From assembly GCA_001896725.1 (NCBI GenBank), contig MPPA01000032.1, positions 1 to 35,639 of the forward strand: 35,639 nt of DNA, written 5' to 3'. A model generated the notes under the pieces. It saw nothing but the letters and a program-made list of their open reading frames with translations, made no database searches and was not told where the DNA came from. Of this stretch, positions 13,305 through 18,676 are shown piece by piece; the first letter of the stretch is position 1, and the number at the start of each line of letters is the position of its first letter. Made by a program: the position numbers and the translations under genes. The stretch is from Methanococcoides sp. EBM-47 (GTDB lineage Archaea; Halobacteriota; Methanosarcinia; Methanosarcinales; Methanosarcinaceae).

Positions 13305-13368
13305 ATTATTATATAATAATGTAATAATTATATATAAATTTTGCTATAATAGGAAAATGGCTGTATAA

Positions 13369-13905
13369 CAAAGTCTTTTTATAAATGCTAAGCTTGACAA
13401 TCCCAACTTCCCGGTATGCAATATCAAAACAGAGTTCCATCACTCTGTCAAATCGTGCAGGATCACCAATTTCAGGGACATTCAGGAAGGCACCGAGATC
13501 CCGGAGCACTCCCTGTGGCGGTACATCAACCACTGGAAAGCCGAAGGCATCCTGGACACCGTAAGAAACCAGTGCACCCAGGTCTTTTTCAAGATCCGCT
13601 CCCTCTGGGAAGCCGCCTGAAAACTCTTCGTGGAACTGTGCAGTATCCTTAAGATCGGCTTCAAGAAGATCTTCGGCCAATACTTCGTAGACTCAGGCAT
13701 CATCCGATCCTTCCGAGAACGTAACAAGAACCTAAAACCGGTTAAACAGCATCAATACCCCACCGAACCCCCTCTCATATTCGAAACCTACCGGGAAGCC
13801 AACAGGCTCTCCAAAGAACTAAAAGAACTCGGTATATCCTGCAAGATCGCTGTAGTCTCAAACGGGAATACGATGAGGTATAGCCGTGTGATCGGGTGGA
13901 CCTGA
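13369..13905 (+). pseudogene. Broken gene of unknown function with in-frame TGA
   Basis: One frame is open from 13369 to the TGA at 13903-13905 except for a single TGA at 13618-13620. There is no ATG, GTG or TTG at the beginning, so the 5' end is lost or starts elsewhere. The first part reads like an amphipathic helical protein (EHSLWRYINHWKAEGILDTV); the second part contains FETYREANRLSKELKELG and ends RYSRVIGWT. A GTG at 13630 could start the second part, but no ribosome site precedes it. Its codons mostly end in C or G (ATC, CTC, TTC, AAG, GCC), unlike the AT-rich island genes around it, pointing to a foreign origin. I do not recognise the family. A shorter ORF on the opposite strand (13309-13680) is considered the shadow. 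Confidence 0.5.
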
Positions 13906-14031
13906 AGAGCTATGGCTCTCTAAAAGGGGAGATAATCCACTCAAAAGTCCCAAAATAAATAATTCTATACTTAAAAATATGGCTTAGTTACATAAAAAAT
14001 TACTCAATAAAAACTGAGCTATGGGTAAATA

Positions 14032-14766
14032 TTATGGAGCTGGTGCACAGTTCCCTTTATCTGTATCAGTATCTGATTTTTTAACCATCGGAATATAGAA
14101 ATTGTCTGATTTATCAAGCATTACTTGCTTATTTATCTTTTCCATAATATCTTTAATTGCTTGCTTATATGAGGCATCATATTCTATTGTCTTTAAACGA
14201 CTCATACCACGTACTAGTTCCAATATTTCTTCTAATATTTCTCTTTCACTACGTACAGGTAACTTCTCCCCACCTTCAATATGAATTTTGTTTAATTCAG
14301 ATTCAAGCTCTTTCCACATATGTCCAAATGTTTTTTCTAAAGTACGCTTTTCTAATTTTTCTTCACGTAAACTTTCATTCAAACTATCTAGAAGCTTAAA
14401 AGTCTCTTCTTTGTTTGCTTCTATCATTTGAAATTGGCTTAGAGGACCTGTAACTTGTGATTTTTCAACCTGAAACAAATAGGGACAAACTTCTGAGTCT
14501 CCTTTCATTGACTTTGCTAGTGCTCCGGCTTCAAAATGTATCCAATCAGATTTTAAATTATCACTTGTTAAACAAATTATCCCAAAACTTGTTTCTTCTA
14601 ATTCACTCTTAATTTCATCTGACCATCTACTTCCGGCCTTAATATCAAGCGAAGAAACCCAAGTATCAATAGCTTGAATTACAGAAGGTATCCATTCTTT
14701 TAAAGCTTCAGCCACTTTTTGACTGCTATCGCCTGACCAGCTTATGAAAACCTTCTTTTTAGCCAT
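14032..14766 (-). CDS. TIR-domain protein (candidate defence effector)
   Basis: The 244-aa protein begins with a TIR domain: KKVFISWSGDSSQKVAEAL (box 1), IKAGSRWSDEIKSEL, IICLTSDNLKSDWIHFEAGAL. Glu79 in WIHFEAGAL sits where the catalytic glutamate of NAD-cleaving TIR enzymes lies. Family knowledge: prokaryotic TIR proteins of this type often deplete NAD+ or make cyclic ADP-ribose derivatives in anti-phage systems. The C-terminal half (about 130-244) is charged and helical with no domain I recognise, perhaps for assembly or sensing. No second gene of a known TIR system (Thoeris ThsA, a CBASS cyclase or an Argonaute) is visible nearby, so it may act alone or with the nucleases downstream. The gene points away from them, so it is not in their operon. 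Confidence 0.8.
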   Translation of the reverse strand: MAKKKVFISWSGDSSQKVAEALKEWIPSVIQAIDTWVSSLDIKAGSRWSDEIKSELEETSFGIICLTSDNLKSDWIHFEAGALAKSMKGDSEVCPYLFQVEKSQVTGPLSQFQMIEANKEETFKLLDSLNESLREEKLEKRTLEKTFGHMWKELESELNKIHIEGGEKLPVRSEREILEEILELVRGMSRLKTIEYDASYKQAIKDIMEKINKQVMLDKSDNFYIPMVKKSDTDTDKGNCAPAP

Positions 14767-15229
14767 TTTCTTCCTCCAAGAGTTGCTAAATAAATAATTT
14801 AGATTTTACAATATAAAGATTTATCTTTGTACCTATAGTTCTCTTCTATAACAAATCTATGTTTGGGACTGCAATCACAAAATAGAATATGCACCATACA
14901 TGGCCTGTGAATATCGTTTCTCCTTTTTCCCATCCTCCAACAAATTCCCCACCTACCCCGCATTTGCGCCGCTTCGCGGTGACAGTAGCTTTTTTCATCC
15001 GTTCCCTTAGGTACACGATTAAGGACTGTTTGCCACAGATGGCATGCATCCCAATCTTACCCAGATCTTCCAAGCCCAAAAACTCTAGCGGAAATATACA
15101 TTTCCCATCCAAAAATTATAGAGCTCTGTAATCAAAAAAAATGGCAAAAGATATAAATAATATAATTATAATAATATTTTATATTTGCTCCATGTAAATT
15201 TACTTGATCAAAAAACGAAGGTGTGAAAA
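14767..15229. other. Intergenic stretch, no gene supported
   Basis: This 463-bp stretch between the divergent TIR and nuclease genes holds AT-rich promoter DNA at both ends (near 14790-14820, and 15140-15190 with several TATA-like runs). In the middle is a less AT-rich block (about 14930-15000) with CGCCGCTTCGCGG. A minus-strand ORF of 88 codons (14846-15112) and a plus-strand ORF of 80 codons (14889-15131) overlap here; neither has a ribosome site or a recognisable domain. It could be a gene remnant. Confidence 0.4.
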
Positions 15230-15715
15230 ATGGGTTTCCTTGGAGAATTACTTGAAGATGTGACAGGCAAAGCTAAAAGACCTGAAATCAAAGGCAGCAG
15301 GTTTGAAAGCTTTGTTTCTGAAGAGATATTCAACGATAAATTATTTGATCTCGTAGAGGCGACAAGAGATTTTAATTCAAATAAAGAGAGATTTGAAGAA
15401 CGAAGCATGAACCCTGATTTTTGTTTCAGGGATAAAAGGACCGGTGAAGAGTTCTGGATCGAAGCCAAATACCGAAACGGGCTTTTTAAAAATGATAAAG
15501 GACAGTTTGTCTGCGAGATCTGCAAACCCTGGCAATTAGACAGATATAAAGAAGTAGAGAAAAACAGCGGCAAAAATGTCTATATCTGCTTGGGTCTTGG
15601 CGAGGATCCCAGATATCCTGAAACGGTCCATCTGATACCTGTATATGGTGCTTATCCTCAATTGTTCCAAAGCAAACTCAAAGAGACATTGATCTGGAGA
15701 AATCCAGATATTTGA
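15230..15715 (+). CDS. PD-(D/E)XK-type nuclease-like protein
   Basis: The 161-aa protein has the layout of a small restriction-endonuclease-fold nuclease: an early acidic helix (KGSRFESFVSEEIF, Glu26), then NPDFCF with Pro62-Asp63, then FWIEAKYRNG with Glu78 and Lys80, forming PD...E-x-K, which would bind Mg2+ and cut DNA. KPWQLDRYKEV follows as a likely helix facing the active site. Related small proteins occur as stand-alone nucleases and in defence loci. The ATG has a GGTGTG-type site 5 nt upstream, and an AT-rich promoter lies before it. The Cas4-like gene starts 86 bp downstream on the same strand, but an AT-rich gap suggests that one may have its own promoter. The target is unknown. Confidence 0.7.
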   Translation: MGFLGELLEDVTGKAKRPEIKGSRFESFVSEEIFNDKLFDLVEATRDFNSNKERFEERSMNPDFCFRDKRTGEEFWIEAKYRNGLFKNDKGQFVCEICKPWQLDRYKEVEKNSGKNVYICLGLGEDPRYPETVHLIPVYGAYPQLFQSKLKETLIWRNPDI

Positions 15716-15801
15716 AAAGTTTGAATATCCTACTACTTAAATATTTTTTATAATATTAATTACTATATTTTAACTATAAATAAAATACTGTAGTTGATAG
15801 C

Positions 15802-16881
15802 ATGAATATTATCAATTGGGAAGATTCTTTAAGAAAGGGAGCGCAGCCTTGTAAATCTAAAATAAGATTTGACTTGTCTTATGTACCGATATCTCACTTT
15901 GCTAAACAGTATTTCTGTGAAAAACAACTAGATTATGAATATAGTGTTGGGAAAGAAACTTCAGAAAAAGAGATAGAAGGAACATTTATCCATGAAAACG
16001 TATTTGCCACTGAAGAAGTAGATTTAGAACAACTTATTGAATCGATTGCTAACAGTAGTTTTTATGCATGCGTTTTCCCTTTGTATTTTGAGATAAACGG
16101 AATTAGCTTTTGTGGTATTCCAGATGGAATAATTTTTTCAGAAGGTAAACCAATTTTGCTCATTGAATTAAAAACAACATCTGGCAATCCATATACTCTT
16201 TACAAAAACCAAACAATACAAGCAGAAGCATATGCTTTTGCTCTTGAAACCATGGGTTTTGATTGCAATAACTTATGCGTTGTCATAATCTCTATTAATA
16301 AACTAACAGCCATGTTATATGGAGAAGAATGCATAAATATTGTGACCAATGGGATTGAACAACTTATCACAAATAATCAAGTATTAAATGAAGCTTCTCT
16401 TAAAAAAATGCAAGAATATCTCCCATACGAAGCAGTCATTCACAGGATAGAATTAGATCACTCTCGTTTTCTCAAAGATGCTACATATTCAAGCATGTAT
16501 TGGAAGATGGAAAGAGATGCCAGACAAAAGGGATCTTTTTACAAATGTAAGCAATGTACATATTCTAAAGAATGCACGCACTATGATCAAAAGTGGTCAG
16601 TTGAAGAAAACAAAAAACTGGCTGAAGAGCATTCCAAAGGAACATCAATCGAAGAGATTGCAAAAATGCTTGGGAAAACAACTACATCCATAAATAACCA
16701 GTTGATACGTCAAAAATATCCAAAACATGGCCAGATTTGGTCTAAAAGAGATATAAACAGATTGGCCAAATTATTCTCACAAGATCTAGCTACATGGTAT
16801 ATAGCAGATGTCCTGAAGCGGAAACCTTCTGCTATTGAAAAGAAGCTAGTGGACTTAGGTCTTATTGAAAAAAACAAATGA
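15802..16881 (+). CDS. Cas4/RecB-like nuclease fused to two SANT/Myb-like helix-turn-helix repeats
   Basis: Residues 1-260 read as a Cas4/RecB-family PD-(D/E)XK nuclease: Cys39 in YFCEKQL, His64 in GTFIHENV, Asp108 in GIPDGI, Glu122 and Lys124 in IELKTT, and the Q-x3-Y box at Gln140-Tyr144. Cys249, Cys252 and Cys258 (CKQCTYSKEC) together with Cys39 match the four cysteines that hold a [4Fe-4S] cluster in Cas4. All catalytic residues look intact. Two further modules follow, KWSVEENKKLAEEHSKG (about 262-302) and IWSKRDINRLAKLF (about 312-357), which read as SANT/Myb-like helix-turn-helix repeats and should bind DNA. No CRISPR array or other cas gene is in the window, so this is probably not an adaptation gene. 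The island setting suggests defence or mobile-element biology. A decayed copy of the C-terminal part follows. Confidence 0.75.
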   Translation: MNIINWEDSLRKGAQPCKSKIRFDLSYVPISHFAKQYFCEKQLDYEYSVGKETSEKEIEGTFIHENVFATEEVDLEQLIESIANSSFYACVFPLYFEINGISFCGIPDGIIFSEGKPILLIELKTTSGNPYTLYKNQTIQAEAYAFALETMGFDCNNLCVVIISINKLTAMLYGEECINIVTNGIEQLITNNQVLNEASLKKMQEYLPYEAVIHRIELDHSRFLKDATYSSMYWKMERDARQKGSFYKCKQCTYSKECTHYDQKWSVEENKKLAEEHSKGTSIEEIAKMLGKTTTSINNQLIRQKYPKHGQIWSKRDINRLAKLFSQDLATWYIADVLKRKPSAIEKKLVDLGLIEKNK

Positions 16882-16903
16882 CAATTATCCATCAGCTGAA
16901 TAA

Positions 16904-17148
16904 GTGCGAAAGGGATTTCCAAAATATCTTACCCCATGGAACGAAGAGGATATTGTGAAATTAGTAGAAATGTTCCATGAAAAAAAAGTATCGATGAGAT
17001 TTCTCATATCTTACAACGAACCAAATATGATATAATAGCTAAACTGGAGAGATCGGGTCTTATAAAGTCAAATGCAACCAGTGTAAAAATATGCGATACT
17101 TGCAATTCTAGGAATAATTGCACATTGGACTTAAATAAAAGAATTTAG
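16904..17148 (+). pseudogene. Frameshifted SANT-like domain plus Cys cluster, relative of the upstream C-terminus
   Basis: From a GTG at 16904 one frame reads KYLTPWNEEDIVKLVEMFHEKK, then hits a run of eight A (16980-16987). Slipping back one base there gives SIDEISHILQRTKYDIIAK, LERSGLIKSN, and VKICDTCNSRNNCTLDL, ending at TAG 17146-17148. So a SANT-like repeat and a C-x2-C-x5-C cluster, like those of the preceding protein (CKQCTYSKEC), are split by a one-base shift in the A-run. It lies in a different frame from the upstream gene, 22 bp past its stop. It may be a decayed paralog, a sequencing error in a homopolymer, or a programmed -1 frameshift. Confidence 0.55.
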
Positions 17149-17186
17149 GCTTTGTAGAAAAGCTACTCTTGATTTTATTTTGACCT

Positions 17187-17317
17187 GGCTCTGTAGAAAT
17201 CGTTTTTTTTGATGAGCAAAAGAAATCTAAATTTTTAAATAATGTACCTGTATATATAGGTATAGAAATGATATTTCAGGCTAATGATACTGATTTTTAG
17301 AGGAATTCTACAGAGCC
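17187..17317. mobile_element. MITE-like element with terminal inverted repeats
   Basis: A 131-bp segment starts with GGCTCTGTAGAAAT (17187-17200) and ends with ATTCTACAGAGCC (17305-17317), inverted repeats matching over 12 bp. It encodes no transposase, and a small inverted repeat (TACCT 17245-17249, AGGTA 17258-17262) is inside. A variant of the same end, GGCTTTGTAGAAAA, begins at 17148, 39 bp upstream, possibly the end of an older insertion. No clear target duplication is visible. This fits a non-autonomous IS derivative. Confidence 0.6.
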
Positions 17318-17318
17318 C

Positions 17319-17508
17319 ATTTTAGACGCGTTTAAAAATTTATTGTCCGAACTAGAAGAGCGAAAAGTCAATAGAAGAGCTTGCTATTGAATTTGGGTAC
17401 AGAAATGTTTCTTTGAATTTAAAGAACTATGAGACAACTCTAACAGTATTCCTATGCCCTGCTTGTGAATATATAATTATGGACATGATCTTTGATTATC
17501 GTGCATAA
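17319..17508 (+). pseudogene. Gene remnant, possibly helix-turn-helix type
   Basis: Directly after the MITE end, one frame reads FKNLLSELEERK and, after a one-base shift near 17364, SIEELAIEFGYRNVSLNLK followed by VFLCPACEYIIMDMIFDYRA to TAA at 17506-17508. The SIEELA segment resembles the SIEEIAK and SIDEISH helices of the two SANT-like genes upstream, and CPAC recalls their Cys clusters. No start codon or ribosome site is seen. It is probably the decayed tail of another family member, cut by the MITE. Confidence 0.35.
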
Positions 17509-17525
17509 TAATAGAAGAAATCCAA

Positions 17526-18353
17526 TCAAAAAACACTCTTTTTATTTTTCTTATCTTTTATATAAATAATAACACTTTTATCCAAATCCTGCTGTTTTTT
17601 TCTGTCAATCTCGAAAAGGTCTATTGCTACTACAAGATCTCCAAGTTTTTTGTATCCATAACTTCTGGGATCGAAAGTAGAACTGCGTTTTATTATTTTA
17701 TCGCCTACTTCTGCTAGAGAAGCCCATCCATCCTCATTTGCAGAATCCTCCACGGCAGCTCTCAAAAGATTTACGAGCTTTGAGTCCCCTTTAAGTTTAT
17801 TGCTATCCTTTATGTCCGTTAATGATGGAGTTGATACCTCTATTACTTTAGCCTCTTCCCCTCGTAAGTTTTCAGTATAAATGAATTTATCACAGGCTGA
17901 AGCAAACGCAGAAGGCGTTTTTTTTTCCCCAAAGCCATAGACTTTAACGCCTGATTCTCGAATCCTTTGTGCAAGGCGTGTGAAATCACTATCACTTGAT
18001 ATAATGCAAAATCCATCAAATCTTTCTGTATGAAGCAGGTCCATAGCATCAATTATAAGAGCACTATCTGTTGCATTCTTACCATCGGTGTAGGCGAACT
18101 GCTGTATTGGCTGCATAGAATGATCAAGCAGTATTTTTTTCCATGAGTTCAGGTTTGGTTTTGTCCAGTCTCCATAGATCCTTTTCACAATTGCAATTCC
18201 ATAAATTGCAATCTCATCCATCAATCCTTCTATGATCGATGGCTGAGCATTATCTGCATCTATTAGCACAGCCAGTTTTTCATTAGTCCTTACGTAGTCT
18301 CTCAAGTCTCTCATAACACCATCTTTAGATCTATACTCAAATTCTGCCATCAT
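17526..18353 (-). CDS. NYN-domain ribonuclease-like protein with OST-HTH/LOTUS domain (LabA-type)
   Basis: The 275-aa protein has an N-terminal NYN (PIN-like) domain with acidic residues that would bind Mg2+: LAVLIDADNA, DGKNATDSALIIDAMDLL, and IISSDSDFTRLAQRIRESG. About residues 185-265 form an OST-HTH/LOTUS domain (KLVNLLRAAVEDSANEDGWA, then DPRSYGYKKLGDLV), a fold that binds RNA or G-quadruplexes. It is expected to cleave or bind RNA; bacterial LabA/DUF88 relatives are widespread and poorly defined. I chose the first of two adjacent ATGs; an in-frame ATG 45 bp further upstream (18398) is the alternative. A TATA-like TTTTTTATA (18404-18412) predicts transcription starting near 18380, favouring the shorter form. 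No ribosome site is visible for either. It points against the nuclease genes. Confidence 0.85.
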   Translation of the reverse strand: MMAEFEYRSKDGVMRDLRDYVRTNEKLAVLIDADNAQPSIIEGLMDEIAIYGIAIVKRIYGDWTKPNLNSWKKILLDHSMQPIQQFAYTDGKNATDSALIIDAMDLLHTERFDGFCIISSDSDFTRLAQRIRESGVKVYGFGEKKTPSAFASACDKFIYTENLRGEEAKVIEVSTPSLTDIKDSNKLKGDSKLVNLLRAAVEDSANEDGWASLAEVGDKIIKRSSTFDPRSYGYKKLGDLVVAIDLFEIDRKKQQDLDKSVIIYIKDKKNKKSVF

Positions 18354-18427
18354 GATGATTGATTTTGTACAGTTTAATGTTTTTTGGGCATTTAACATTT
18401 TCTATAAAAAAATACGGTTTGCTTTGT

Positions 18428-18585
18428 TCATTCAACCTTCAGTATTTCTCCATTTTTTAGATAAGATTTTATTGTGTCAATAGATTCAGTTACATTTTAA
18501 TATAATTTTTGCAATTCAGCTTTGGGTCAATGACTTCTAACCACGTTTTTACCGTTTCGTATTTATCCAATGTTTCCCATTTCAT
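18428..18585 (-). pseudogene. Short frameshifted remnant, possibly an integrase N-terminus
   Basis: From an ATG at 18585 the minus strand reads MKWETLDKYETVKTWLEVID and on to KNYIK; after a one-base shift it continues NVTESIDTIKSYLKNGEIL to a TGA at 18428-18430. The YETVKTWL start followed by a helix resembles the N-terminal SAM-like domain of archaeal tyrosine recombinases, but the catalytic domain is absent. The identification is weak. It lies at the right edge of the accessory island. Confidence 0.3.
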
Positions 18586-18608
18586 GCTTAACAACTCACC
18601 GTACGCAT

Positions 18609-18648
18609 CGGATCATGCAGAAATATCCGATCCGTAATATATAAATTA
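18609..18648 (+). promoter_or_regulatory. Inverted-repeat operator candidate with TATA box, upstream of the Lrp-type gene
   Basis: CGGATC (18609-18614) and GATCCG (18629-18634) form an inverted repeat with arm starts 20 bp apart, about two helical turns, so a dimer could grip one face. The TATA box TATATAAA (18638-18645) follows within 4 bp, so a bound regulator would block TBP. The predicted transcription start is near 18668, beyond the GGAGGG at 18649-18654, which complicates start choice for the gene. Confidence 0.5.
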
Positions 18649-18676
18649 GGAGGGATGATGTATTACCGTAGTTGGC

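What the first reader, a model, noticed from the sequence alone, without database searches (positions are those of the whole stretch)
15802..17148. Cas4-like nuclease fused to tandem SANT/Myb-like repeats, with a frameshifted downstream relative
Seen: intact PD-(D/E)XK residues (His64, Asp108, Glu122, Lys124, Gln140-Tyr144), four Cas4-type cysteines (39, 249, 252, 258) and two C-terminal HTH-like repeats in one protein. Known: Cas4 binds [4Fe-4S] and acts in CRISPR adaptation; SANT-like repeats are rare next to it. No cas genes or array are present. Inference: a DNA-guided nuclease in which the HTH array sets where it cuts, possibly in defence or mobile DNA control.
Basis: partly seen in the sequence, partly recalled or inferred. 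Interest (0 to 1): 0.68.

Follow-up and report, generated by a model that had tools for sequence, protein, structure and literature searches.

The report
Truncated Exo5-like nuclease with Myb repeats
A methane-producing archaeon carries, in a small inserted island, a cut-short gene for an Exo5-type DNA-cutting enzyme (not Cas4, as first thought) joined to a row of DNA-gripping modules; this combination was found only in this genus, and what it does is untested.

Summary
It has a PD-(D/E)XK nuclease domain and two C-terminal Myb-like HTH repeats. Two readings change. (1) The nuclease is Exo5-type rather than Cas4. It carries the Exo5 first-cysteine motif (QxxCE) and YW..R-CX2CX5C in 4/4 relatives, as do 8/8 archaeal Exo5, whereas 0/27 Cas4/solo-Cas4 carry YW..R. 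Its best solved relative is Exonuclease V (E=1.8e-9), and Cas4 plus solo-Cas4 form a clade that excludes it (100/99). (2) The "frameshifted downstream relative" is the rest of the same gene. An intact 521-aa copy (L010) has four Myb-like repeats. The window copy is cut by a +1 indel, a nonsense codon and a -1 indel, then by an IS end and a MITE. The M. hollandica pMETHO01 copy is split by IS1 and ISH3, between type III R-M genes and viperin. In the window, the gene sits with a TIR-TM gene and a second PD-(D/E)XK gene in a 5.3-kb insertion absent from three congeners. Outside the genus only stand-alone relatives were found. Most likely: a DNA-tethered, Fe-S, end-resecting nuclease of a variable, defence-like gene set. 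Whether the truncated protein works is open.

The parts
15802..16881 (+). Truncated ORF (359 aa + stop): Exo5-like PD-(D/E)XK nuclease plus two Myb-like HTH repeats
15802..16584 (+). Exo5-type nuclease domain (aa 1-261); H64, D108, E122, K124, Q140, Y144; putative [4Fe-4S] ligands C39, C249, C252, C258
16588..16704 (+). Myb-like HTH repeat 1 (aa 263-301)
   Evidence: HTH_38/Myb hits; three-helix bundle in AF2 model of the intact homologue
16732..16866 (+). Myb-like HTH repeat 2 (aa 311-355)
   Evidence: alignment of four repeats of L010, AF2 bundle
16867..17148 (+). Decayed remainder of the same gene (HTH repeat 3 and second Cys motif, to ancestral codon 448): +1 in an A-run near 16868-16874, TAA at 16901 in the ancestral frame, -1 in an A-run near 16980-16987
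   Evidence: alignment to intact L010 gene
17148..17186 (.). IS-end-like 39-bp sequence (3 other copies in the genome at 90-97% identity) that ends homology to the intact gene
17187..17318 (.). MITE-like element with GGCTCTGTAGAA / TTCTACAGAGCC inverted ends; 8 other full or partial copies in the genome
15230..15715 (+). 161-aa second PD-(D/E)XK protein (E26, D63, E78-x-K80, Q102), located directly upstream of the nuclease gene in all three copies
14032..14766 (-). TIR-TM defence-type protein in the same insertion
   Evidence: PADLOC TIR-TM E=1.2e-70
17526..18398 (-). NYN + OST-HTH/LOTUS protein in the same insertion
   Evidence: no match in five congeners
13349..18667 (.). 5.3-kb accessory insertion between rfcL and the asnC-like/top6B genes; absent from G140, G141 and G142

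Best explanation
The gene belongs to a small family that joins an Exo5-type [4Fe-4S] PD-(D/E)XK nuclease to an array of four Myb/SANT-like HTH repeats, carried on a plasmid and a chromosomal insertion in Methanomethylovorans. Shown by sequence: domain order, catalytic and cysteine residues, Exo5-type motifs, the intact 521-aa form, truncation of the window copy, and accessory location. Inferred: like EXO5 it threads an open single-strand end and degrades it in a Mg2+-dependent way, while the Myb-like array holds the enzyme on nearby duplex DNA, raising processivity or choosing sites. Its likely role is turnover of foreign or damaged DNA ends as part of a variable defence set (type III R-M, SNF2 helicase and viperin on pMETHO01; TIR-TM in the window). 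In the window the array has been cut from four repeats to two by frameshift, and the rest of the gene is decaying.
For: Profile of window, L010 and two archaeal relatives finds Exonuclease V (7LWA) at E=1.8e-9, covering both the core and the cysteine cluster. All four members hit Pfam Exo5, best 6.5e-7. Exo5 signatures QxxCE and YW..R-CX2CX5C are in 4/4 'ours' and 8/8 archaeal Exo5, while Cas4/solo-Cas4 show CPR/CPK where a first-Cys motif is found and 0/27 YW..R. The D108-E122 spacing (14) and CX2CX5C equal those given for human EXO5 (D182/E196, C356/C359/C365; PMC8710748, PMC12004521). Cas4+solo monophyletic without ours, 100/99; AU rejects ours with CRISPR Cas4, p=0.0027. Four three-helix bundles in the AF2 model; Foldseek leads Reb1 Myb and Cbp1. 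Intact homologue and IS-split plasmid copy. dN/dS 0.26 nuclease, 0.22 HTH1-2 versus L010. Defence neighbours. Insertion absent from congeners.
Against: No biochemical data. Nuclease fold not confirmed by modelling (pLDDT mostly 20-59 across the domain). The Cas4 profile TIGR00372 also matches (1.9e-7, below its cutoff), so the domain sits between two related families, and 'sister to Exo5' rests on midpoint rooting. Defence neighbours differ between the two genomic sites, so the link is association only. All three known copies appear to come from one genus; two of three are disrupted, so the system may be dispensable.
Confidence: 0.6

Rival explanations
1. The window copy is simply a dead pseudogene: the whole gene is decaying after IS hits, and the 359-aa ORF is the part not yet broken. 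(This concerns the window copy only and is compatible with the best explanation for the intact family.)
For: Three disabling lesions plus IS/MITE insertions; the pMETHO01 copy is also broken by two IS elements; dN/dS in the decayed part (0.34, few sites) is not clearly different from the intact part, so decay is recent.
Against: All three frame-disrupting lesions fall in the last ~280 of 1347 bp; chance about 0.009 if lesions were spread evenly (post hoc, three events only). Nuclease residues, cysteines and two HTH repeats are intact.
Confidence: 0.45
2. A housekeeping-type repair/replication nuclease of the host (EXO5/DNA2-like end resection at forks), with HTH repeats for chromatin tethering, not defence.
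For: EXO5 acts at stalled forks (PMC8710748). The same HTH repeat type ends UvrD-like helicases and sits in RecQ in related archaea.
Against: Patchy: 5 of 186 genomes of the order match at all and only the same genus has the fusion; plasmid and insertion location; frequent disruption.
Confidence: 0.25
3. A plasmid/mobile-element function: the HTH array binds sites on the element and the nuclease processes ends during its transfer, replication or integration.
For: Intact-type locus lies on a 285-kb plasmid; nearby insertion sequences.
Against: Window copy is chromosomal without replication or transfer genes nearby (and gene survey); pMETHO01 is typed non-mobilizable.
Confidence: 0.12
4. A Cas4-family protein acting in CRISPR adaptation, with the HTH array recognising CRISPR repeats or leaders in the manner of Cbp1.
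For: TIGR00372 cas4 1.9e-7; weak Cbp1 leads by sequence (E=0.007-0.02) and fold (2lvs, probability 0.93 but E=0.04); the genome has a CRISPR Cas4 elsewhere.
Against: Exo5-type motifs; trees exclude it from Cas4; no cas genes or repeats in the window.
Confidence: 0.05

Closest known systems
Exonuclease V / EXO5 (PF09810; human 7LW7-7LWA)
   Same: PD-(D/E)XK core with D-X13-E-X-K, N-terminal Cys in QxxCE, YW..R before CX2CX5C
   Different: Fused to a Myb-like HTH array; a separate lineage from the archaeal Exo5 set in the trees; Exo5 family cutoff not reached by P0001 alone (E=0.056)
Cas4 / solo-Cas4 (TIGR00372, PF01930)
   Same: Superfamily, Fe-S cysteine arrangement, catalytic residues
   Different: Cas4 has a CPR-type first cysteine motif and no YW..R; separate clade; CRISPR context absent here
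UvrD-Cas4-like fusions of pfam12705 next to type III R-M (PMC5704561)
   Same: RecB-like nuclease fused to a second DNA-handling module; type III Res/Mod nearby on pMETHO01
   Different: Partner is an HTH array, not a helicase; nuclease is Exo5-type
C-terminal Myb-like HTH of archaeal UvrD-like and RecQ helicases
   Same: Same repeat type (E to 2e-9)
   Different: Single repeat on helicases, four on this nuclease
Cbp1 CRISPR repeat-binding protein (2lvs) and Reb1 Myb repeats
   Same: Tandem three-helix HTH units
   Different: Only weak similarity (Foldseek E above 0.001); no nuclease

Membership tests
Exo5 (Exonuclease V) | Catalytic D...E-x-K with Q-xxx-Y helix | tested here: met
   D108, E122, K124, Q140, Y144
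Exo5 (Exonuclease V) | Four cysteines, one N-terminal in QxxCE, three C-terminal in CX2CX5C after YW..R | tested here: met
   4/4 ours, 8/8 archaeal Exo5, 0/27 Cas4/solo for YW..R
Exo5 (Exonuclease V) | Score over curated Pfam cutoff | tested here: not met
   window 13.4 and L010 nuclease domain 21.4 vs 25 bits; hence 'Exo5-like', not filed as an orthologue
Exo5 (Exonuclease V) | Phylogenetic grouping with Exo5 | tested here: inconclusive
   On the Exo5 side of a 100/99 branch away from Cas4, but the archaeal Exo5 set is itself a supported group without it; root is midpoint
Exo5 (Exonuclease V) | [4Fe-4S] cluster and ssDNA exonuclease activity | not testable with these tools
   Needs purified protein
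Cas4 | Clade membership / equivalog score | tested here: not met
   31.1 vs cutoff 65 bits; excluded from Cas4+solo clade 100/99, AU p=0.0027
Cas4 | CPR/CPK first-cysteine motif | tested here: not met
   QYFCE instead
Cas4 | cas1/cas2 neighbours or array (CRISPR-associated form) | tested here: not met
   window
Tandem Myb/SANT-like HTH array | Repeated three-helix units with conserved W and L positions | tested here: met
   four bundles with local pLDDT up to ~80, repeat alignment; Pfam HTH_38 just below (P0001) or above (L010) cutoff
Anti-phage defence system | Located among known defence genes | tested here: met
   type III R-M, viperin, SNF2 helicase on pMETHO01; TIR-TM in window
Anti-phage defence system | Protects cells from viruses or plasmids | not testable with these tools
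   Needs a host assay

The most novel reading that the evidence does not exclude
The pair (161-aa PD-(D/E)XK protein + Exo5-like nuclease with a Myb array) is an undescribed archaeal DNA-degrading defence module in which a tandem HTH array tethers an Fe-S exonuclease to target DNA, and the window's two-repeat form is a still-functional shortened variant.
Probability: 0.18. Interest if true: 0.6.

Novelty: new variant of a known kind. Interest (0 to 1): 0.36.

Why it matters
Exo5-type nucleases are known mainly as single-domain repair enzymes, and solo Cas4/Exo5-like archaeal nucleases are largely uncharacterised. A version with a built-in DNA-binding array on a defence-rich plasmid would be a handle on how such nucleases are targeted. 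It also shows that cysteine and YW..R motifs, not the cas4 profile hit alone, should decide whether a stray archaeal nuclease is called Cas4.

Tried and rejected
AF2 models of the 521-aa homologue and of the nuclease domain alone (two-sequence alignments): HTH bundles usable, nuclease domain not; the predicted secondary-structure order (four strands 94-123, helix 130-150, strand 159-164) fits PD-(D/E)XK but is not evidence of fold. Viral contig scans with the nuclease alignment, P0001 and P0002: no relatives. Phage collection: only an ARV1 protein at E=0.01. Hits in G059 and G152 were an unrelated HTH protein and a Cas4-Cas1 protein beside CRISPR genes. PDB search with the P0002 family profile found nothing. 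CRISPR-adaptation role rejected (see rivals). The idea of two separate genes (16881 stop, then a relative) was rejected by the intact homologue.

Full report
What was checked. The window lies on contig C7 of a 2.18-Mb genome; a same-genus genome (G140) matches the plasmid record of Methanomethylovorans hollandica. The nuclease residues H64, D108, E122, K124, Q140 and Y144 are conserved down to ~28-32% identity, including the partial G007 copy; all four cysteines are conserved in the two full-length ~28% relatives from genomes of another class in the phylum.

The gene is truncated. A contig in the genome collection, L010, carries an intact 521-aa version with four Myb-like repeats and a second CxxC-type motif. 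Against it the window is collinear through codon 448 at 77% identity, with a +1 change in an A-run near 16868-16874, a TAA at 16901 in the ancestral frame, and a -1 change near 16980-16987. Homology ends at 17148 at an IS-end-like sequence followed by a 132-bp MITE-like element whose ends are inverted repeats and which has many copies in the genome. So the 'frameshifted downstream relative' is the tail of the same gene. The pMETHO01 copy is interrupted by IS1 and ISH3, with what look like 8-bp and 5-bp target duplications. L010 is labelled a Methanofastidiosum MAG but is 98.4% identical to pMETHO01 over 3.45 kb, so it is probably a misbinned Methanomethylovorans plasmid contig (inference).

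Is the truncated form alive? dN/dS against L010 is 0.26 for the nuclease and 0.22 for the two retained repeats, with few sites giving 0.34 in the decayed tail. These values mostly reflect the time before truncation. All three frame-disrupting lesions lie in the last ~280 of 1347 bp, which even spreading would give with probability about 0.009. This suggests that the N-terminal part stayed under constraint, but the test is post hoc and uses three events.

What the nuclease is. P0001 alone gives sub-threshold hits to cas4 (1.9e-7, 31 of 65 bits), Exo5 and HSDR_N. A four-sequence profile finds only Exonuclease V in the PDB (1.8e-9, both core and cysteine cluster), and all four members match Pfam Exo5, best 6.5e-7. 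A motif comparison against sequences gathered from 197 genomes each for Exo5 and cas4 is clear: QxxCE and YW..R before CX2CX5C in ours (4/4) and archaeal Exo5 (8/8); where a first-cysteine motif is found in Cas4 and solo-Cas4 it is CPR/CPK, and none of 27 has YW..R. In trees Cas4 plus solo-Cas4 form one side of a 100/99 branch that excludes ours, and holding ours with CRISPR Cas4 is rejected (p=0.0027). Because the root is at the midpoint and the Exo5 set is itself a supported group without ours, 'Exo5-like' is the safe label. Published EXO5 facts used: single domain, [4Fe-4S] joining N- and C-terminal cysteines, D182/E196, 5'-3' resection of open ssDNA ends enforced by RPA (PMC8710748), ligands C92/C356/C359/C365 (PMC12004521). 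The window protein has the same D-E spacing and CX2CX5C.

What the array is. AF2 of the intact homologue gives four three-helix bundles, at 267-305, 315-351, 381-417 and 469-505, with local pLDDT about 60-80. Foldseek's leading, non-significant matches are Reb1 Myb repeats and Cbp1. In other genomes of the order the same repeat type is found at the C-terminus of UvrD-like helicases and inside a RecQ. It is therefore a reused DNA-binding module. No source showing an Exo5-HTH fusion was found in the library.

Where it lives. Between rfcL and the asnC-like/top6B genes the window has a 5.3-kb insertion (13349-18667) missing from G140, G141 and G142. It holds TIR-TM, the 161-aa PD-(D/E)XK protein, the Exo5-HTH gene and an NYN-LOTUS gene with no match in five congeners. 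On pMETHO01 the same two-gene pair sits between a type III Res/Mod, DUF4391 and SNF2-helicase block and a viperin. The 161-aa protein is widespread in the family and also occurs without the nuclease at 81-85% identity, so the pairing is not obligatory. Outside the genus the nuclease was found only as stand-alone, ~270-aa or broken genes.

Mechanism and confidence. Shown: architecture, residues, truncation, context. Inferred: ssDNA-end resection by the Exo5-like domain, tethering or targeting by the array, a defence-type role. The Cas4/CRISPR reading is disfavoured; 'pseudogene in the window' and 'host repair nuclease' remain serious rivals.

Noticed in passing
window 14032-14766 (-): TIR-TM defence-type gene (PADLOC E=1.2e-70) in the same insertion as the nuclease.
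   Followed up: partly
window 17526-18398 (-): NYN domain + OST-HTH/LOTUS protein, no match in five congeners; possibly an RNA nuclease belonging to the same insertion.
   Followed up: partly
window 15230-15715 (+): Member of a family-wide set of ~160-aa PD-(D/E)XK proteins with no solved relative and no Pfam match for this member; weak TnsA-like and PDDEXK_11 hits in others.
   Followed up: partly
window 17319-17510: After the MITE, a frameshifted stretch reads like another HTH unit plus CPAC motif (KSIEELAIEFGYRNVSLNLKNYE...CPAC) and does not match the intact gene's fourth repeat.
   Followed up: no
G000 C33:315390-315461: Short fragment 88% identical to residues 66-89 of the 161-aa protein, a second remnant in the same genome.
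   Followed up: no
L010 (LNGD01000095.1): Contig labelled Methanofastidiosum is 98.4% identical to M. hollandica pMETHO01 over 3.45 kb; probable misbinning.
   Followed up: yes
L054, L055, L057, L061, L064, L060, L063: Archaeal UvrD-like helicases (and RecQ) carry the same Myb-like repeat at the C-terminus or inserted; a recurrent helicase add-on.
   Followed up: partly
L012 8212-9100: A damaged stand-alone relative of the nuclease in another family of the order; its C-terminal cysteine part is separated from the core by about 250 bp.
   Followed up: partly
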